A DNA stretch of 64,000 nt from Chaetoceros tenuissimus. Taxonomy: Eukaryota > Bacillariophyta > Thalassiosirophyceae > Chaetocerotales > Chaetocerotaceae. The stretch is from the NCBI GenBank assembly GCA_021927905.1, contig BLLK01000046.1:1240001-1304000 (forward strand). Direction: 5' to 3'. Positions 11,723 through 50,300 of the stretch are shown piece by piece. The position numbers and the translations under genes are program-made. Below the pieces are notes generated by a model. The model worked only from the letters and a program-made list of their open reading frames with translations, was not told where the DNA came from and did no database searches. Positions within the stretch are counted from its first letter, which is position 1, and each line of letters starts with the position of its first letter.

Positions 11723-14700
11723 CTATCTCTTTCTAGAAGAGCTTTTCGATTCTGTACCACCAAGTGCAAATGTATTAAAATAGATGAAACCTTTGCTTGA
11801 ACTTGAGCCTTTGCTCAAGCCCTTACCATTGCCCTTGCTGGAACCTTTGCTCAAGCCCTTACCCTTGCCCTTGCTAGAACCTTTACTTGTATTTGAACCT
11901 TTACCTGTTGGGACTAAAACTGGAGCTGATGTGGGCGATTTAGTGTCTCTCATTGTAGGAAAGCCTCCCACTGGAGGAAGAGTCTTTGAAGATGTAGGAG
12001 CACCCGTGATCACAATACTTGGAGCTCCTGTCACTGAACTAGTAGAAATGAACGTTGGAGCAGATGATTGATTCATTGATGGTGTTTGTGTAGGCTATGG
12101 TAGTCGAAGTCGATGTTTAGAAAATGTAAAGAGTGTTGAACTTCAAGATTTAGTTTTCCTCGTACTGATACTTACATTTGACGTTGGTGAAGCTATGGGA
12201 GTTTCCAATTCAGTGATTGGTTTCGTTGGTGAATCAGTTTCTTTCATTGTAGGAAAGCCTCCCACTGGAGGAAGAGTCTTTGAAGATGTAGGCGCTCCTG
12301 ACGGTGATCTTGTAGGCTAGTATGGGTTAAATTAGAAATTGAGAAAACAATGAAAAGGGACATTGCTAACAATCAAATAAAATTTCTTCATCAACTGAAA
12401 CTTACACTTGTAGTTGGTGCAATTGTAGGACTACGTGTAGGACGAGAGGAAGGGACAGCACTTGGACTAGATGATGGACATTGCCTGTACTCATTGCTGC
12501 CATTCCAAAATCCACATGCTACTGGACAACTATCTCCTACAGTTGAAGCGGTCTCGCAGACGTCGTCTCTATAGCAGTACCTACTCTTTCGTTTCTCTGT
12601 TGCATTAATATTTTTTATCAACCAAGAACATGATGTACTTTGAATACTAAAATGTTCACCGTTTGGGACTAGCCGAATAAAGACGTCATCTCCTTCTTCG
12701 TCAGTTACTTCACAATGATTACAGGAAAGTCGACATGCACTCTTGACATGAGTATAAGAGCAATACCTGTCCAAACGTATCTGCTTCTTTTGCCAGTTGC
12801 TGGTAAGCCATGCGCAGTCTCTTCTTTGTGCATCGTCGAGAGGATCGGTAGCGGATAGTAAAGGGAAAGTGAACGATGTGAAGTCTTCGCATGTATTTGG
12901 TATAGATGGTGATTCAGTGTCGCTTGTTGTAGGAAAACCTCCAACTGGGGGACGGGTCTTAGAGACTGTGGGTGTAATTGTAATTGCACCACTAGGCGCT
13001 GCTGATGGTACTTTTGTAGGCTATTGAAAACAAAATAAGATATAAGACAATTTTGAAATATCAGGTACTTGGTGGATATCGCTTCTCTTACTTACATTTG
13101 TAGTTGGTGCAATTGTAGGACTACGTGTAGGACGAGAGGTTGGAGAGCTCGTCACCTTTGAAATTGGGACAGCACTTGGACTAGATGATGGACATTGCCT
13201 GTACTCATTGCTGCCATTCCAAAATCCACACGCTACTGGACAACTATCTCTTACAGTTGAAGCGGTCTCGCAGACGTCGTCTCTATAGCAGTACCTACTC
13301 TTTCGTTTCTCTGTTGGATTAATATTTTTTGTCAGCCAAGAACATCCAACTTTTCCACTTTCTGTACTAGCTATAGCACTGGTCACAAGATTCTGATCAT
13401 CTATATTTCCATTTGATACCATTAGGCTAAAAATGTCATCTCCTTCTTCGTCAGTTACTTCACAATGATTACAGGAAAGTCGACATGCACTCTTGACATG
13501 ATTATAAGAGCAATACCTGTCCAAACGTATCTGCTTCTTTTGCCAGTTGCTGGTAAGCCATGCGCAGTCTCTTCTTTGTGCATCGTCGAGAGGATCGGTA
13601 GCGGATAGTAAAGGGAAAGTAAATGGTATCAAGTCCTCACATTTTTCTGGTGCAATAGGTGTAACAGGTGAAGCAACGGGAGACTTTGACGGTGAGGTTG
13701 TAGCGGCATCGCAACTCTCTTTCCAACTTTCATCGCAAAAACCGCATGCATCGAAACAGCTATGACCAATTGTGGTAGGAGCGCAACTTTTACTGTAGCA
13801 GTATGCATTACGTCGAATGTCACGCTTAAGCCAGTTGTTACTGATCCAGCTACATGATCTACTTTCACCACTTATGGATGTGAAAGATGCCTCTTTAGAA
13901 CTTTCGCATTTGCTGTCACATGGGTTTGAATTGTTTTCATCGCAAAACCCGCATGCTTTTTTACATACATTTCCAATATCTGATACCTCTCCACAAACAT
14001 CATCATTGTAACAATACTTTCTTCTACGAAGATCACGTTTGGAGAAGTTCTTGTCAATCCACGAACAAGTTTGACTACCCCCATCATTCACTAGTTCAAA
14101 ACGGAAGAAAGGATCATCCTCATCACATTGTATTGGAATAAAGCCAACAACAAATGGAATTGTTGGGGATTCAGTTGATCTAGTTGGAGATGGTGTTGGT
14201 GCTTGAGTTGGAGAAGAAGTTGGTGGGCCTTCACAGCGATTCATACTAGTCAAAAATTTGCCATCTGGACAATGGCAGTTTTTCTTATCTTCAGATTGCA
14301 CAAAAGTATTTTCACATTGACACACAGGCACTAATTCATCATTTACGTTCTGCACAGAGCACTTGCCATGACCACTACAACTTATACCCTCGCATGGGGG
14401 TCTTGGGGTTGGAGCTGCAACTGGTGGCAATGGAATGGGTACAGGTACATGTAAAGGTACAGGGACTGTGAGAATAGGGCTTGAAGTAGGTGCATCTGAA
14501 ATAGGTACAGATACAAGTGCTATTGGAGTATTTGTTTTCTAGATGAGGAAAATACAGAACAAAGAGTGATGCCAATTAGAAAAGTAGAGAAATGTTTAAT
14601 TTTCGATGTAAGAGTTTGACTTACGCTGATTGTAGGGCTGGCAGTAGGTGTTTGTGGAACGACTATTGCAGCAATCGGAGAAGATGTAGGCTACAACGGA

Positions 14701-17700
14701 CATGTTAGAAGTACAACGGTAAGGAAGAGAGAAGCAAAGTAGAATACAATTTCACTTACACTCTCGGTAGAACTAGCAGTAGGTGGACTTGTCGCAAAAG
14801 TAGGAGAGTTTGTGGGCTAAATTTCAATGAAACAAAGAGAGTTAGAGACTAAAACATTTAGTATAATTGCAACAAAATAAAGAAACTCACGCTAGACGTA
14901 GGAGTCGAGGTTGGAGCAGGTGTGACAATGTTAGGAGAGCTTGTCGGTGAAGACGTCGGCTTTGAATAGAAAAAGAAAAAAATGAAACACGTTAGCAACT
15001 TGTCAAAAGTAAAGAACATTTCAATTGAACTTGTACCCTAAGATGATAATAAACGTACTCCTGGGGATAGAGGTACAGTCAGATTTGGAATTGGGGGCTT
15101 TGTAGGCTGCGGTAGTATCGAAATCACAATTTAAGTGAGTGTCAAAATGAAAATTCAAAAGGAATATCACAAAAGCCGTTTGAAGAAAAGTACTTACTGC
15201 TGCTGTAGGTGAACTCGATGGACTTGAAGTTGGTTGAGGAGTTGCTGCAGTTGGTGCTTGAGTCGGAGCGCTTGAAGGCTATAGGAAAAAGAGAAACGTT
15301 AGTCTTGTTAGCTATTTCTATTCAAAAGAAAAACGAGTATCATACAAAAGATACTTACAGCTGCTGTAGGTGAACTCGATGGACTTGAAGTTGGTTGAGG
15401 AGTTGCTGCTGCTGTAGGTGAACTCGATGGACTTGAAGTTGGTTGAGGAGTTGCTGCTGCTGTAGGTGAACTCGATGGACTTGAAGTTGGTTGAGGAGTT
15501 GCTGCTGCTGTAGGTGAACTCGATGGACTTGAAGTTGGTTGAGGAGTTGCTGCTGCTGTAGGCGAACTAGTTGGAACTGCGGTCGGTGCGCTTGAAGGCT
15601 ATAGAAAACAAAAAAGGTGACTCTAGTTAGAATTTCCTTTTCAGAAGAAAGACGAGTATCAAATATATCAAATTGGACTCAGTCAATCTACAAAAACAAG
15701 AAACTTACTGCTGCAGTTGGCGAAGCTGAAGGACTTGAAGTCGGTGAGCTCGTCGGAGAGCTTGTGGGCTGTTGATAAAGAAGGAAATGTAGGAGTTAGA
15801 TATGTGAAAGCCTTGTTCTATTTTTCTTTTACATCCAAAATACTCACTGCTGCAGTTGGCGAAGCTGAAGGACTTGAAGTCGGTGAGCTCGTCGGAGAGC
15901 TTGTGGGCTGTTGATAAAGAAGGAAATGTAGGAGTTAGATATGTGAAAGCCTTGTTCTATTATTCTTTTACATCCAAAATACTCACTGCTGCAGTTGGCG
16001 AAGCTGAAGGACTTGAAGTCGGTGAGCTCGTCGGAGAGCTTGTGGGCTGTTGATAAAGAAGGAAATGTAGGAGTTAGATATGTGAAAGCCTTGCATTGTT
16101 TTGTATTATTCTTTTACATCCAAAATACTCACTGCTGCAGTTGGCGAAGCTGAAGGACTTGAAGACGGTGAGCTCGTCGGAGAGCTTGTGGGCTATTGAT
16201 AAAGAAGGAAACGTAGGAGTTAGATATGTGAAAGCCTTGTCTTTAACTAAAGTTAATATCCAAAATACTCACTGCTGCAGTTGGCGAAGCTGAAGGACTT
16301 GAAGTCGGTGAGCTCGTCGGAGAGCTTGTGGGCTGTTGATAAAGAAGGAAATGTAGGAGTTAGATATGTGAAAGCCATGTCTTGAACTAAAGTTAATATC
16401 CAAAATACTCACTGCTGCAGTTGGCGAAGCTGAAGGACTTGAAGTCGGTGAGCTCGTCGGAGAGCTTGTGGGCTGTTGATAAAGAAGGAAATGTAGGAGT
16501 TAGATATGTGAAAGCCTTGTTCTATTATTCTTTTACATCCAAAATACTCACTGCTGCAGTTGGCGAAGCTGAAGGACTTGAAGTCGGTGAGCTCGTCGGA
16601 GAGCTTGTGGGCTGTTGATAAAGAAGGAAATGTAGGAGTTAGATATGTGAAAGCCTTGTTCTATGAACTTTACATCCAAAATACTCACTGCTGCAGTTGG
16701 CGAAGCTGAAGGACTTGAAGTCGGTGAGCTCGTCGGAGAGCTTGTGGGCTGTTGATAAAGAAGGAAATGTAGGAGTTAGATATGTGAAAGCCTTGTCTTG
16801 AACTAAAGTTAATATCCAAAATACTCACTGCTGCAGTTGGCGAAGCTGAAGGACTTGAAGTCGGTGAGCTCGTCGGAGAGCTTGTGGGCTATTGATAAAG
16901 AAGGAAATGTAGGAGTTAGATATGTGAAATCCTTGTTCTATTATTCTTTTACATCCAAAATACTCACTGCTGCAGTTGGCGAAGCTGAAGGACTTGAAGA
17001 CAGTGAGCTCGTCGGAGAGCTTGTGGGCTATTGATAAAGAAGGAAACGTAGGAGTTAGATATATGAAAGCCTTGTTCTATTATTCTTTTACATCCAAAAT
17101 ACTCACTGCTGCAGTTGGCGAAGCTGAAGGACTTGAAGTCGGTGAGCTCGTCGGAGAGCTTGTGGGCTATTGATAAAGAAGGAAATGTAGGAGTTAGATA
17201 TGTGAAAGCCTTGTCTTGAACTAAAGTTAATATCCAAAATACTCACTGCTGCAGTTGGCGAAGCTGAAGGACTTGAAGTCGGTGAGCTCGTCGGAGAGCT
17301 TGTGGGCTATAGGTAAAGAAGGAAATGTAGGAGTTAGATATGTGAAAGCCTTGTCTTGAACTAAAGTTAATATTCAAAATACTCACTGCTGCAGTTGGCG
17401 AAGCTGAAGGACTTGAAGTCGGTGAGCTCGTCGGAGAGCTTGTGGGCTGTTGATAAAGAAGGAAATGTAGGAGTTAGATATGTGAAAGCCTTGCATTGTT
17501 TTGTATTATTCTTTTACATCCAAAATACTCACTGCTGCAGTTGGCGAAGCTGAAGGACTTGAAGTCGGTGAGCTCGTCGGAGAGCTTGTGGGCTGTTGAT
17601 AAAGAAGGAAATGTAGGAGTTAGATATGTGAAAGCCTTGTTCTATAATTCTTTTACATCCAAAATACTCACTGCTGCAGTTGGCGAAGCTGAAGGACTTG

Positions 17701-20392
17701 AAGTCGGTGAGCTCGTCGGAGAGCTTGTGGGCTGTTGATAAAGAAGGAAATGTAGGAGTTAGATATATGAAAGCCTTGTTCTATTATTCTTTTACATCCA
17801 AAATACTCACTGCTGCAGTTGGCGAAGCTGAAGGACTTGAAGTCGGTGAGCTCGTCGGAGAGCTTGTGGGCGAAGCTGAAGGACTTGAAGTCGGTGAGCT
17901 CGTCGGAGAGCTTGTGGGCTGTTGATAAAGAAGGAAATGTAGGAGTTAGATATGTGAAAGCCTTGCATTGTTTTGTATTATTCTTTTACATCCAAAATAC
18001 TCACTGCTGCAGTTGGCGAAGCTGAAGGACTTGAAGTCGGTGAGCTCGTCGGAGAGCTTGTGGGCTATTGATAAAGAAGGAAATGTAGGAGTTAGATATA
18101 TGAAAGCCTTGCATTGTTTTGTATTATTCTTTTACATCCAAAATACTCACTGCTGCAGTTGGCGAAGCTGAAGGACTTGAAGTCGGTGAGCTCGTCGGAG
18201 AGCTTGTGGGCTGTTGATAAAGAAGGAAATGTAGGAGTTAGATATGTGAAAGCCTTGTCTTGAACTAAACTTAATATCCAAAATACTCACTGCTGCAGTT
18301 GGCGAAGCTGAAGGACTTGAAGTCGGTGAGCTCGTCGGAGAGCTTGTGGGCTGTTGATAAAGAAGGAAATGTAGGAGTTAGATATGTGAAAGCCTTGCAT
18401 TGTTTTGTATTATTCTTTTACATCCAAAATACTCACTGCTGCAGTTGGCGAAGCTGAAGGACTTGAAGTCGGTGAGCTCGTCGGAGAGCTTGTGGGCTAT
18501 TGATAAAGAAGGAAATGTAGGAGTTAGATATATGAAAGCCTTGCATTGTTTTGTATTATTCTTTTACATCCAAAATACTCACTGCTGCAGTTGGCGAAGC
18601 TGAAGGACTTGAAGTCGGTGAGCTCGTCGGAGAGCTTGTGGGCTGTTGATAAAGAAGGAAATGTAGGAGTTAGATATGTGAAAGCCTTGTTCTATTATTC
18701 TTTTACATCCAAAATACTCACTGCTGCAGTTGGCGAAGCTGAAGGACTTGAAGTCGGTGAGCTCGTCGGAGAGCTTGTGGGCTGTTGATAAAGAAGGAAA
18801 TGTAGGAGTTAGATATGTGAAAGCCTTGTTCTATTATTCTTTTACATCCAAAATACTCACTGCTACAGTTGGCGAAGCTGAAGGACTTGAAGTCGGTGAG
18901 CTCGTCGGAGAGCTTGTGGGCTGTTGATAAAGAAGGAAATGTAGGAGTTAGATATGTGAAAGCCTTGTTCTATAATTCTTTTACATCCAAAATACTCACT
19001 GCTGCAGTTGGCGAAGCTGAAGGACTTGAAGACGGTGAGCTCGTCGGAGAGCTTGTGGGCTATTGATAAAGAAGGAAACGTAGGAGTTAGATATGTGAAA
19101 GCCTTGTCTTTAACTAAAGTTAATATCCAAAATACTCACTGCTGCAGTTGGCGAAGCTGAAGGACTTGAAGTCGGTGAGCTCGTCGGAGAGCTTGTGGGC
19201 TGTTGATAAAGAAGGAAATGTAGGAGTTAGATATGTGAAAGCCTTGTTCTATTATTCTTTTACATCCAAAATACTCACTGCTGCAGTTGGCGAAGCTGAA
19301 GGACTTGAAGTCGGTGAGCTCGTCGGAGAGCTTATGGGCTGTAGGTTATGAAAGCGAAATATGAGTTAGATTTTATCAAATGTAGTTTCAATTTTTTATT
19401 TTCAAAGTACTTACTGCATTCGTTGTGTCTGGTTGAGATGGAAAACAAATTTGTGTTTCGCAGTTTACATTTGCTGGCGAATCACAGTGTCCACCCGTTC
19501 CTTCTTTTTTAAATAATGTTCCAGGTCCACAATATTGTGTAGTTCCATATAACTGATTGTAGTTGCCACAATATTGATATCCTGTACAATCCTCGACTGG
19601 AACTAATTCGCCGTTTGTACAGGTACATTGTGGTGTCGGTTCACCATCACAATTTACATGATAGCTGTGATTGCATATTTCTAAGGAATTATCAAAGAGA
19701 GTACCAGCTCCACAAGATTGAGGTCCACTTGTAATCTCTCCATCTGTACAGTAGACGAATGACTCACAAGAATTGATTGCTTTTTTACCTGTGAAACCAG
19801 TAGGGCAGACATTTTTAAGACATACGGGTTGTATACTTTGATTTCCAGATGGCGTTTGCGTTTGACTTGTTTGAATGAAAGCAAAGGATTTAATTGCCGA
19901 ATTTCCATTGCCTTGTTTTACATAACAACCTGTTGGAAACTCCGAGATATCTGGATCACCATTATTACCATTTGATTGAAAAAATCTAGCATCGTTTGTG
20001 GTTAAAACACCTAAATATGTAAATGATGAATCATCGAATGCATCAAATGCATCTTGACATAAAGACTGATCCACAACTTGTGGCCCCCTTAAAGACTGAG
20101 AGCCTGCATTGCACCATGCTTGATTACCATTACCACCGGCTGAAGATCCACTATAAAAATCTCCAAAGTACTTGGACTGATTTGTTCGACGATTTCTTTG
20201 TTCGTTCTGAAAATTGTATATACTTTTTGTTTCAAAGTCTTCAACGAAAGAGAGGGGTTTCAGTGTTGGGGTTGTTTAAATTATTGTAATAATTCCATGA
20301 TATAAAAAGTACATACCTCTTTCAGCTGCAGATTGTACCAATGTCCTCTCCATTGAAAGTGCTACGACAAGATGAATGTATGAAACCTTCAT
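11723..20392 (-). CDS. Giant secreted chitin-binding, PT-stalk, Cys-rich protein; 38 exons, 1879 aa
   Basis: Reconstructed by hand. Exons: 20392..20317, 20238..19415, 26 array exons (19338 down to 15709, see repeat entry), 15598..15359, 15278..15198, 15106..15059, 14959..14891, 14816..14760, 14690..14625, 14538..13096, 13020..12406, 12316..12176, 12094..11723. Every border is GT-AG; all introns are phase 0 except intron 1 (phase 1), and the coding total is 5640 nt. Intron 1's acceptor (20239) was chosen because it alone keeps the frame. Protein order: signal peptide; two peritrophin-A-like Cys domains at about 170-290 (CNHSYHVNC, YQYCGNYNQLYG); P/T/S/A stalk 301-1023; EGF-like module (CSGHGKCSVQ) early in the 481-codon exon; six copies of a Cys domain with CSWxxxN, RYCY and CGFC motifs; a Lys/Gly/Ser tail (SSKGKGKGLSKGSSKGNGKG). 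By family the first part binds chitin. I infer an extracellular wall protein; the Lys-rich tail resembles silica-associated Lys clusters. Gene unity is likely but unproven by cDNA. Confidence 0.8.
15359..15598 (-). repeat. 48 bp tandem repeat inside one 240 nt exon
   Basis: About four copies of a 48 bp unit encode TAAATPQPTSSPSSSP within a single exon, without introns between copies. It adjoins the exon array and extends the same stalk. The 48 bp size equals the internal duplication in the 108 nt array exon at 17811..17918. Confidence 0.92.
15709..19338 (-). repeat. Tandem array of 26 near-identical exon+intron units
   Basis: Each unit is a 60 nt exon plus an intron of 77, 79, 80 or 86 bp; spacing is 137-146 bp, once 194. 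Exon low coordinates: 15709, 15848, 15987, 16133, 16273, 16413, 16552, 16689, 16829, 16968, 17107, 17247, 17387, 17533, 17672, 17811 (108 nt), 18005, 18151, 18291, 18437, 18583, 18722, 18861, 19000, 19140, 19279. On the minus strand each exon encodes PTSSPTSSPTSSPSASPTAA, preceded by TCAACAG or TCAATAG and followed by GTGAGTATTTTGG. All exons are phase 0 and multiples of three. Most introns carry an in-frame TAA nine codons in, and none preserves the frame if retained, so splicing is required. Confidence 0.95.
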
Positions 20393-47397: not shown

Positions 47398-50300
47398 ATG
47401 AGGTACACGAGTATCAAGAGAGCCTACTGCTCCAAGACATTCATGATGTGTTCGCTAGTAGTGATAGCAGCACTGCATCTTCAATCACACTTGGCTTTTG
47501 CTGAAAGGTCAAGCTTGCGAGGTAGAAAACACTTGCAACGAACAGATACCTTCATCTCGAATAATTTGAATGAATCAATACTGTCGATCAAAGTCGATGA
47601 TACAAAGAATGACCACTACATAATTACTTCTACAAACACTGATAGAGAAAACGTCAAGAATCGAAAGTCATCTAGTCAAATAATAAGAGATGAACATTCT
47701 TTTATTCAGAGTCATCGCAAATTACAAAAACCGGATTATACATATGATTGCCTAGCTGATTGGACTTCCATAAAATCAGCAATCATTCTAAGCTCCGTTC
47801 TCTCTCCAGACGACCCACCTGATTTTGTTCTGTGTCCAGATACAGTGATTTTACTGCAAATTGATGAAACGACACAAATGGAACCGGTTGACATCAAAAT
47901 AGATAATGCAAAATTTAAATGTGGAGAAAATGGAAAACAAGATGATAAATGCCTCATTGTAGGGGGGTATGCTCATTTTCGTCTCATTGGAAATGTAAAG
48001 GGGGTTACGTTTCAAGGAATCACATTTTCAGGTTCCTCCATGGCGTCTATACTAGCAACGGGAGAATCGAATGCCAATGCTGAATTTCTAGATTGCGCAT
48101 GGATTGATAATAAAGGTCTCACTGCTGTCTTGATTTACAATGAAGATAAGGGGGTACCAGTTGATAAATTGTCGAAAATTCAAGACTTGGTCGAACCTCG
48201 AGCGAAATCCATGACGCTTACTTTTCGAGATTGTGTTTTCTCGAGAAATAAGAACAAATATAGTACAGTGCTCAATCTAGCGGGTAAAGCGAATTTTGTA
48301 TCGACCGTATTTGTCAATAATAAGTCTCTTGGCGGTTCGATACGGATCAAATTTTCAAGTAATCTGAATATGGTCAAGTCATGCTTCTTTGAAGATAAAG
48401 CAGAATATGCAGGGATCGTCGTGATAGAAGAAGGAAGTGAAATTGACGTTAATAAGGATACCTACGGAGAAGCAAATTCAGCAGAAGTAGGTATTTGCTC
48501 TAGAATTTTCTATGAAGTTGGTGATAGTTGCATCGATAATGAGGATGAAATATCTTGTGTTGGTATGTGTGGTTTCTTTACCGCTGATACATGTGAAGTT
48601 GACTTGAAGAGGGTTGCGTCGGATTCAAATGTTATCAAGAGCATTTTAGATAATACCTATGATGAGAGTGGCATGGGTGGTGGCGGCGGAAATTTCCTAG
48701 GTAAAATGTCCCTTGAATTGTTGATTGCTGGAGGAATAGGTTTCGTCATTTTTATATTCTTCCTTGTATGTTGCACCGGACGATGCTGTTACAGATCTGG
48801 AATGAAGAAGGGTAAAGCAGACTATCAACTTTTGCAAAGCCATGATCATAATCAAGGCCCAGGTGGGCCGTCTGATAGCTGCGGTACTAGTGGAACTAGT
48901 GCTCCTTCTGAACAACCTGCCACTAACATTCCTGTTGCTACGCCAGCCAGCCAAGATATCTTTGAGGATAATGGTATTGTTGCATCTACAGTAGCACAGG
49001 TAGATAATGATTCAACTGTAGCTATTTCTCAAGACAAAAAAGAGAAAAAGTCAGAGGAAGGCAAACCAAAACCTTCTATCACATCACCACCACCATCAGC
49101 GCCTGTAAATCGCCAAAGTACTAATGTGAAGAAAGCATCAGAAGATTATCTACCTACATTTAAGAGAAGTAAGCGAAGAGAAAGCAATGCCAGTGACGCT
49201 TTTGCTTTTGGTGGATTAATGAAGAACGGTGCAGACGATGATGATAGTGAATTAGGAGTTTTGGGTAAAAAAGTCAAGAAGAAAAGTGAAAGTGCAGACG
49301 ATGATGATAGTGAATTAGGAGTTTTGGGTAAAAAAGTCAAGAAGAAAAGTGAAAGTGATGGTAAAAGAAAAATCCGAAAGAAAAGTCCGTATCAAAGACG
49401 AAGATCCTTCTTCCGGAGAAGAGTCAGACAGTGATGAGTCAAAGGATGAAAAAGATAGTAAGAAGAAAAAGAGTAGAAAGAGCCTGCGTAAAAGCCGTAG
49501 ACATTCCACTGATGAAGAGGCAACAGACGATAATGAAGAGCATCGCAAGAGCCGTAGACATGCCAGCGATGATGAAGATGCTGTCAAGAAAAGCAAAAAA
49601 GTAGTCTTCGAAAGAGTCGTAGACATGCTAGTGACGACGAAGATGCTGTCAAGAAGAGCAAAGATGAACTACGAAAGAGCCGTAGACATGCTAGTGATGA
49701 TGAAGATGCTGTCAAGAAGAGTAAAGACGAACTGCGAAAGAGCCGTAAAAATGCTAGTGACGATGAAGATGCTGTCAAAAAGAGTAAAGACGAACTGCGA
49801 AAGAGCCGTAAAAATGCTAGTGACGATGAAGATGCTGTCAAGAAGAGCAAAGATAAACTTCGTAAAAGTCGCAGACGTGCAAGTGATGATGAGGAGGCAA
49901 CAGACGATAATGAAGAGCATCGAAAGAGTCGTAGACATGCTAGCGATGATGAAGATGCTGTCAAGAAAAGCAAAGACGAACTGCGAAAGAGTCGTAAACA
50001 TGCTAGCGATGATGAAGATGCTGTCAAGAAAAGCAAAGACGAGCTACGAAAAAGCCGTAGACATGCTAGTGACGATGAAGATGCTGTCAAAAAGAGTAAA
50101 GACGAACTGCGAAAGAGCCGTAGACATGCTAGTGACGATGAAGATGCTGTCAAGAAGAGCAAAGATAAACTTCGTAAAAGTCGCAGACGTGCAAGTGATG
50201 ATGAGGAGGCAACAGACGATAATGAAGAGCATCGAAAGAGCCGTAGACATGCTAGTGACGACGAAGATGCTGTCAAGATGGGTAAAGAAAGTCTTCGAAA

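What the first reader, a model, noticed from the sequence alone, without database searches (positions are those of the whole stretch)
15709..19338. 26 tandem, near-identical exon-intron units encoding a mucin-like stalk
Seen directly: the repeating unit is not a simple coding or non-coding satellite but a complete splicing cassette of 60 nt exon, GTGAGT donor, 77-86 bp intron and (C)AG acceptor. All exons are phase 0 and multiples of three. Each encodes PTSSPTSSPTSSPSASPTAA. Because the cassette is symmetric, unequal crossover, exon skipping or any change in copy number leaves the downstream frame intact. The stalk could therefore vary in length genetically and by splicing, while each intron stays short enough for intron definition. 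Symmetric exon duplication is known, but an array this long and homogeneous is unusual for a compact diatom genome.
Basis: partly seen in the sequence, partly recalled or inferred. Interest (0 to 1): 0.93.

Follow-up and report, generated by a model that had tools for sequence, protein, structure and literature searches.

The report
Repeated exon-intron cassettes in diatom genes
A diatom gene builds a long flexible, mucin-like stalk from 26 nearly identical small exons separated by nearly identical introns, and the same exon-plus-intron module, still recognisable in both parts, also sits in other genes of the genome, most of them with different domains.

Summary
On the minus strand, 19338 to 15709 carries 26 tandem symmetric phase-0 exons (25 of 60 nt, one of 108 nt) separated by 25 introns of 77-86 nt. 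They sit in an open 38-exon, 1879-codon gene model: CBM14 chitin-binding region, P/T/S stalk, Cys-rich modules, K/S/G-rich tail. The genome is Chaetoceros tenuissimus. The array is not solitary. Its exon and intron, together, recur in six other genes (two are paralogs, one is damaged, one shares a Cys-rich module with the window gene). A 25-nt intron motif (up to 3 mismatches) occurs 50 times genome-wide, each time before a P/T/S exon, and 0 times in the reversed control. The array's 25 introns form one clade (99/96). Two further cassette families with unrelated introns have the same layout. Best reading: dispersed phase-0 exon-intron cassettes spread between genes by recombination, then expanded and homogenised locally, lengthening disordered stalks. 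Splicing, length polymorphism and glycosylation were not testable. Close precedents: Tetrahymena LRR exon arrays, Argiope MaSp2 introns, brown-algal ROCO exons. New variant of a known kind.

The parts
15709..19338 (-). Array of 26 phase-0 P/T/S exons and 25 near-identical introns (family-1 cassettes); encodes 536 aa of stalk
17811..17918 (-). 108-nt variant exon with an in-exon 48-nt tandem duplication (no intron inside)
19279..19338 (-). First array exon, PISSPTSSPTSSPSASPTAA
15709..15768 (-). Last array exon; donor GTAAGT; followed by a 110-nt intron that is not of the cassette type
20317..20392 (-). Exon 1, start codon and short hydrophobic leader (weak signal-peptide candidate by eye; boundaries are my choice of frame-compatible splice sites)
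19415..20238 (-). Exon 2, N-terminal domain with CBM14 (Peritrophin-A) chitin-binding match
15359..15598 (-). Exon 29, 240 nt: intronless 48-nt repeats (PTSSPSSSPTAAATPQ), a similar stalk made without introns
14625..15278 (-). Exons 30-34, P/T-rich phase-0 exons of 48-81 nt with introns unlike those of the array
13096..14538 (-). Exon 35, Cys-rich modules (relatives in C. tenuissimus and C. debilis; also in the cassette-bearing C16 gene)
12406..13020 (-). Exon 36, repeats part of the Cys-rich block of exon 35 (read by eye)
11723..12316 (-). Exons 37-38, P/T-rich end and K/S/G-rich tail, stop at 11723

Best explanation
The array is a local expansion of a dispersed exon-intron cassette. Each cassette is one phase-0 exon, mostly of 48 or 60 nt, encoding PTSSPTSS(PTSS)PSASPTAA or a close variant, plus a short intron with its own donor, branch point and acceptor. 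SHOWN by sequence: cassettes with homologous exon and homologous intron lie in seven C. tenuissimus genes of at least four host types; within the window gene all 25 introns form one clade and units carry mixed combinations of variants, as exchange between units would give; every unit keeps the frame. INFERRED: P/T/S-coding repeats, common in this genome, serve as homology for ectopic recombination or gene conversion that moved a cassette into new genes; unequal crossover then multiplied it. The introns are spliced by intron definition and the units are translated as one 536-aa disordered stalk, probably O-glycosylated or phosphorylated, that separates a chitin-binding head from Cys-rich modules and a K/S-rich tail in a secreted or cell-wall protein. 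Copy number, hence stalk length, is free to drift or be selected without breaking the frame.
For: Intact array and gene model, CTAAC at a fixed distance from the acceptor in 25 of 25 introns. Intron retention shifts the frame in 25 of 25 and adds an in-frame stop in 19 of 25. Intron motif: 50 hits, 0 in the reversed control, split C33 25, C18 17, C47 5, C54 1, C16 1, C59 1; 50 of 50 are followed by an acceptor and a P/T/S/A-rich exon start. Cross-gene alignment to the first array intron, splice sites trimmed: z 12.6 to 38 for 8 of 8 representative introns from the six other genes, against -1.2 to 2.5 for 12 non-array introns of the same gene (mononucleotide shuffles). Introns of the window array one clade 99/96, three of C47b another 99/98. 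Inside the array 9 of 15 marker pairs show all four combinations. In a tandem triplet of M11-like protease genes only the middle one has the cassette intron in its P/T linker; the other two read through their linkers without an intron. Between arrays, 11 of 11 distinct exons have more synonymous than non-synonymous codon changes against the window exon (not independent). Host types: CBM14/Cys-rich (window; C16 shares the Cys-rich module), M11 peptidase (C54), reprolysin-like zincin just under Pfam's cut-off (C47), Cys-rich repeat protein without a Pfam name (C18); the tested pieces of C18, C47 and C54 do not match the window protein or each other beyond E 0.011.
Against: No RNA evidence; splicing is inferred from sites. 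Within the array all exon codon differences (four distinct changes in five exons) are non-synonymous, so the array itself shows no purifying selection on protein. A three-unit higher-order period is weak: 80 of 2000 shuffles as high for C18, 330 of 2000 for C33. The C59 copy is damaged (52-nt exon, truncated aldolase fragment). C16 and the window gene share a Cys-rich module (E 2e-16), so their cassettes could be inherited from a common gene. Mixed marker combinations could partly be repeated mutation. Direction of movement and recombination mechanism are not shown. No signal-peptide predictor was run. Array copy number rests on one assembly.
Confidence: 0.73

Rival explanations
1. The introns are introners (mobile introns that insert by themselves), and the P/T/S exons are simply what is left between insertions into a coding minisatellite.
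For: Near-identical introns in different genes; the genome has many P/T-rich open frames into which introns could insert; only the middle of three protease paralogs has the intron.
Against: All 50 motif hits are followed by a P/T/S/A-rich exon start; the motif has no other hit in the genome. The exon sequence is shared along with the intron in the BLAST matches. The window introns are one clade apart from other loci, as expected of local duplication. No search for target-site duplications was made.
Confidence: 0.12
2. An ordinary single-gene tandem exon duplication, with no dispersal; similarity to other loci reflects duplication of whole genes or of common ancestors.
For: The window array is one clade; the C16 host shares a Cys-rich module with the window gene; C47a and C47b are paralogs.
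Against: C18, C47 and C54 hosts do not match the window protein in the pieces compared, while their introns still align with scores 46-99 against shuffled means of about 14-15; introns outside the array in the same gene show no such likeness.
Confidence: 0.09
3. A non-functional or unspliced tandem repeat: satellite-like DNA or a decaying gene.
For: Low unit diversity could be recent neutral amplification, and exons show no synonymous variant; the C59 copy and part of the C27 array (L046) have broken units.
Against: 1879 open codons over 38 exons, fixed donor and branch-point positions, exon diversity 0.007 against 0.092 per site in introns.
Confidence: 0.04

Closest known systems
Tetrahymena 90-bp LRR exon arrays (PMC6564038; abstract and 12 passages read)
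   Same: Tandem arrays of same-length exons with one intron phase and characteristic intron lengths, local clonal expansions, exon shuffling, ectopic recombination proposed
   Different: There: phase 2, LRRs, tens of thousands of exons of exactly 90 bp in one large gene class. Here: phase 0, P/T/S stalk, exons mostly 36-120 nt, at least three intron families, hosts of several unrelated kinds
Argiope MaSp2 spidroin repetitive introns (PMC9779670; abstract and 12 passages read)
   Same: Structural repeat protein with near-identical introns between similar exons, homogenised within a gene, divergent between genes, signs of exchange between paralogs; the authors propose that introns aid homogenisation
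   Different: Spider silk paralogs, mostly in one genomic cluster; here dispersed in a unicellular alga, and introns are more variable than exons within the array
Brown-algal ROCO LRR exons (PMC11378527; 12 passages read; Zambounis et al. 2012 known only through it)
   Same: Stramenopile, tandem symmetric small exons, one repeat per exon, exon shuffling
   Different: 72-bp phase-2 exons encoding LRRs under diversifying selection; not mucin-like; dispersal to unrelated genes is not described in the passages read
Introner elements (Micromonas, fungi; PMC3879977 and PMC4457414 seen only in a search listing)
   Same: Families of near-identical introns in one genome (recalled)
   Different: Here each intron found comes with a P/T/S exon
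CBM14 proteins with P/T-rich linkers, e.g. P0003 (CBM14 + GH18, 48% identity over 40% of the query region; source organism not given)
   Same: CBM14 modules joined by P/T-rich linkers
   Different: Much shorter linkers; gene structure unknown

Membership tests
CBM14 (Peritrophin-A) chitin-binding proteins | Pfam PF01607 above its curated cut-off | tested here: met
   Exon 2: 40.3 bits, cut-off 22.1, E 3.5e-10
CBM14 (Peritrophin-A) chitin-binding proteins | Binds chitin | not testable with these tools
   needs a binding assay
Mucin-like (PTS-domain) proteins | Long tandem repeats rich in Pro, Thr, Ser | tested here: met
   536 aa in 26 exons; unit has 5 P, 4 T, 8 S, 3 A of 20
Mucin-like (PTS-domain) proteins | Secreted and O-glycosylated | not testable with these tools
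   leader inspected by eye only; no glycan data
Tandem symmetric exon array / exon shuffling | Exons multiples of three, same phase on both sides | tested here: met
   26 of 26 array exons; 36 of 37 introns of the model phase 0
Tandem symmetric exon array / exon shuffling | Module with its intron found in non-homologous genes | tested here: met
   C18, C47 (two paralogs) and C54 hosts do not match the window protein in the pieces compared but share the intron. C16 shares a Cys-rich module and C59 is damaged, so these two are weaker cases
Introner elements | Introns occur in many genes independent of neighbouring exon sequence | tested here: not met
   50 of 50 genome-wide motif hits precede a P/T/S/A-rich exon; motif search only, no whole-genome intron catalogue
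ShK-domain proteins | Pfam PF01549 match in the Cys-rich exons | tested here: inconclusive
   No PF01549 match in exon 35 or 36 up to E 1; a relative, P0008, carries PF01549 in the precomputed table
Argiope-type homogenised introns | Introns of one gene form a clade apart from other genes | tested here: met
   C33 clade 99/96; but C18 is not a single clade (4 changes)

The most novel reading that the evidence does not exclude
C. tenuissimus has a standing system of modular coding cassettes: at least three independent families of phase-0 P/T/S exons, each tied to its own intron, that are moved between unrelated secreted-protein genes and amplified on the spot, so that introns act as recombination platforms for building and retuning extracellular stalks. 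It would be exon shuffling caught in progress in a unicellular alga, with donor, exon and acceptor still alignable between host genes.
Probability: 0.42. Interest if true: 0.76.

Novelty: new variant of a known kind. Interest (0 to 1): 0.63.

Why it matters
Exon shuffling is usually inferred from ancient domain arrangements in animals (recalled). Here exon and intron sequence are still alignable between genes with different domains, which makes the process testable in a culturable diatom. It also offers a natural test of the idea, proposed for spider silk (PMC9779670), that repeated introns help to homogenise repetitive coding DNA: the same genome holds intron-bearing and intronless versions of similar stalks. 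For diatom biology it points to a set of probably extracellular proteins (chitin-binding, proteases, Cys-rich, K/S-rich) whose stalk length may evolve fast.

Tried and rejected
Rejected: a period of three units as a firm feature (80 of 2000 shuffles for C18, 330 of 2000 for C33). Rejected as too weak: an exon-versus-intron contrast as proof of selection; within the array there is no synonymous change at all, so low exon diversity may reflect homogenisation as much as selection. Exact searches outside the genome with the core of the intron motif gave 0 (prokaryote and viral collections, where a diatom is not expected). Two protein searches (only about 8000 best candidates scored each, length-limited) did not return an annotated C. 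tenuissimus protein for this gene, so its public annotation could not be compared. Literature: a diatom chitin-binding mucin (0 papers), Chaetoceros chitin and setae and Thalassiosira p150 gave nothing that I read further. Searches for diatom exon duplication, exon shuffling, repeated exons and repetitive introns (4 of 4, 12 of 120, 15 of 121 and 12 of 1394 papers listed) showed, in titles and abstract starts, nothing on these cassettes; only open-licence texts are held, so this is no proof of absence.

Rows dropped: from the tree I left out the three measured C34 introns, C18's 100-nt intron, two of three measured C47a introns and two of five measured C47b introns, because these lack the family-1 motif. 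In one search only exons starting with CC and at least 68% P/T/S/A were kept, so counts for other loci are lower bounds; L054 and L058 gave no exon under that filter. One search lists only part of its 124 hits. In one search one to three introns per locus were compared, chosen by me.

Full report
WHAT IS THERE. The sequence at 19338-15709 (minus strand) is a run of 26 exons separated by 25 introns. Twenty-five exons are 60 nt, one is 108 nt through an in-exon 48-nt duplication (17918-17811). Twenty of 26 are identical in DNA and encode PTSSPTSSPTSSPSASPTAA; five others carry T2I, T10S (two exons), A19V, or P9L with T10S. Introns are 77, 79, 80 or 86 nt, 15 distinct sequences in 25, in three classes that differ in a central stretch and share the donor end and the 3' half. 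All 25 carry CTAAC starting 31 nt before the exon. None is a multiple of three and 19 of 25 give an in-frame stop if retained.

THE GENE. A 38-exon model from 20392 to 11723 is open for 1879 codons, with 36 of 37 introns in phase 0. Exon 2 has a CBM14 chitin-binding match (40.3 bits, cut-off 22.1). After the array come more P/T-rich phase-0 exons with introns unlike those of the array, one of them (15598-15359) made of intronless 48-nt repeats, then Cys-rich modules in exons 35-36, partly duplicated, and a K/S/G-rich tail. No Pfam family passes its cut-off in exons 35-36; relatives occur in C. tenuissimus and C. debilis, and one relative has a ShK domain in the precomputed table. Exon 1 and its leader are the weakest part of the model.

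THE ORGANISM. The window lies in a 41,027,912-base assembly. Table 1 of the C. tenuissimus genome paper gives 41.0 Mbp and 38.9% G+C (PMC8613185, passage read). Two annotated C. tenuissimus proteins lie on contigs of 1,557,594 and 4,456,483 bases, the lengths of contigs C13 and C34 of this assembly. So the genome is C. tenuissimus.

NOT ALONE: FAMILY 1. DNA searches with about two and about four units found related places in C18, C47, C59, C54, C16 and C34. Reading them: C18 has a second long array, 18 exons (12 of 48 nt, 6 of 60 nt) with several intron types; C47 holds two tandem zincin-protease paralogs, with one and four motif-bearing introns in their linkers; C54 has one in an M11 (gametolysin-like) protease; C16 one in a Cys-rich protein; C59 a damaged pair (one exon 52 nt) next to an aldolase fragment. 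C34 has similar exons but introns without the motif. The 25-nt intron motif ATCTAACTCCTACATTTCCTTCTTT, up to 3 mismatches, occurs 50 times in the genome: 25 in the window array, 17 in C18, 5 in C47, 1 each in C54, C16, C59; the reversed pattern 0 times. All 50 are followed by an acceptor and a P/T/S/A-rich exon start. With splice sites trimmed, representative introns from these genes align to the first array intron with z 12.6 to 38 (8 of 8, 0 of 200 shuffles as high), whereas 12 non-array introns of the same gene give z -1.2 to 2.5 (the highest is the intron just before the array). So the likeness is not a splice consensus. The hosts: C16 shares a Cys-rich module with the window gene (E 2e-16); the compared pieces of C18, C47 and C54 do not match the window protein, nor C54 and C47 each other (best E 0.011).

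FAMILIES 2 AND 3. A donor-junction pattern (SPTAA followed by GTRAGT) gave 124 hits, control 0; an acceptor-junction pattern 95 hits, control 0. They led to further arrays. Family 2: C27:2.054 Mb, at least 16 exons, fifteen of them only 36 nt (PTSSPTESPTEA type), with introns of about 100 nt, in a gene with a K-rich leader, with several broken units; its intron motif occurs 19 times there and once in C32 (20 hits, control 0; alignment z 30.7). Family 3: exons mostly of 72-120 nt (PTKSPTVPPTNPPSPAPTSS type) in C14, C32, C27, C13 and C46; three of these hosts (C32, C13, C46) match M11 peptidase. The intron of C14 matches five of six others with z 8.3 to 19 and one (C27:1.384 Mb) only weakly, z 3.4; these introns are T-rich and the shuffles keep single-base content only, so the scores are to be taken with care. 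C18's last measured intron is of family 3 (z 10.3), so two families meet in one gene. One intron each of families 2 and 3 did not match family 1 (z -0.2 and -0.6).

HOW IT EVOLVED. In a tree of 51 family-1 introns the 25 of the window form one clade (99/96) and three of C47b another (99/98); C18 needs four changes. Thus the window array grew within its gene after the cassette arrived. Inside it 9 of 15 marker pairs show all four combinations, as exchange between units with breakpoints within introns would give. Exon diversity is 0.007 per site, intron diversity 0.092 overall and 0.028 in the last 40 nt. Between arrays exons differ mainly at silent sites (11 of 11 distinct exons with more synonymous than non-synonymous codon changes; these are not independent), but within the array all codon differences (four distinct changes in five exons) are non-synonymous. 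In a triplet of M11 proteases (L013) only the middle paralog has the cassette intron in its linker, which suggests insertion of the cassette there, though loss in the others cannot be excluded.

HOW IT MOST LIKELY WORKS. Shown: symmetric units, intact sites, common ancestry of exon and intron between genes, one clade for the window array. Inferred: splicing by intron definition; exchange between units; a disordered, probably modified stalk of 536 residues between a chitin-binding head and Cys-rich modules; movement by ectopic recombination or conversion anchored in P/T/S-coding repeats; copy number free to change.

COMPARISON. Tetrahymena has arrays of exactly 90-bp phase-2 LRR exons with clonal expansions (PMC6564038, passages). 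Argiope MaSp2 silk genes have homogenised repetitive introns, sometimes alternating, thought to aid homogenisation (PMC9779670, passages). Brown-algal ROCO genes have 72-bp phase-2 LRR exons with shuffling (PMC11378527, passages). The diatom case shares the principle, and differs in phase, in the P/T/S product, in several parallel cassette families, and in dispersal to hosts of several unrelated kinds. I therefore rate it a new variant of a known kind.

Noticed in passing
L046:4638-7395 (C27:2.0546-2.0574 Mb): Array of at least 16 small exons, fifteen of 36 nt, with about 100-nt introns; several units are frame-broken and a copy of the terminal exon with its 3' flank sits inside the array, a possible early-termination alternative (read by eye).
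   Followed up: partly
L012:4577-5430 (C59): Two cassette exons lie in front of fragments of a class II fructose-bisphosphate aldolase (PF01116); the first exon is 52 nt and the aldolase is truncated, so it looks like a decayed fusion.
   Followed up: partly
L014:4450-8199 (C16:2.478 Mb): Single open frame of 1249 aa made largely of near-identical intronless repeats, downstream of a cassette intron: the opposite architecture in the same genome.
   Followed up: no
L009:2-4828 (C18): 1609-aa open frame, much of it intronless PSLIPSNLPT-type repeats, directly downstream of the 18-exon cassette array.
   Followed up: no
window 49543-50278: 63-bp coding repeat (11.7 copies) in a K/S/R/D-rich region where the open frame appears to switch between ORFs; an intron, a frameshift or an assembly indel.
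   Followed up: no
window 11723-11910; L051:3212-3815; P0009: K/S/G-rich stretches (SKGKGKG type) shared by proteins with P/T stalks; reminiscent of silaffin-like sequences (recalled, not tested).
   Followed up: no
L050 (C27:840-842 kb): Family-3-type cassette exons on both strands of neighbouring stretches, as in an inverted gene pair.
   Followed up: no
window 19339-19414: The intron just before the array has a weak likeness to the array introns (z 2.5, 5 of 200 shuffles), perhaps a degraded cassette intron.
   Followed up: partly
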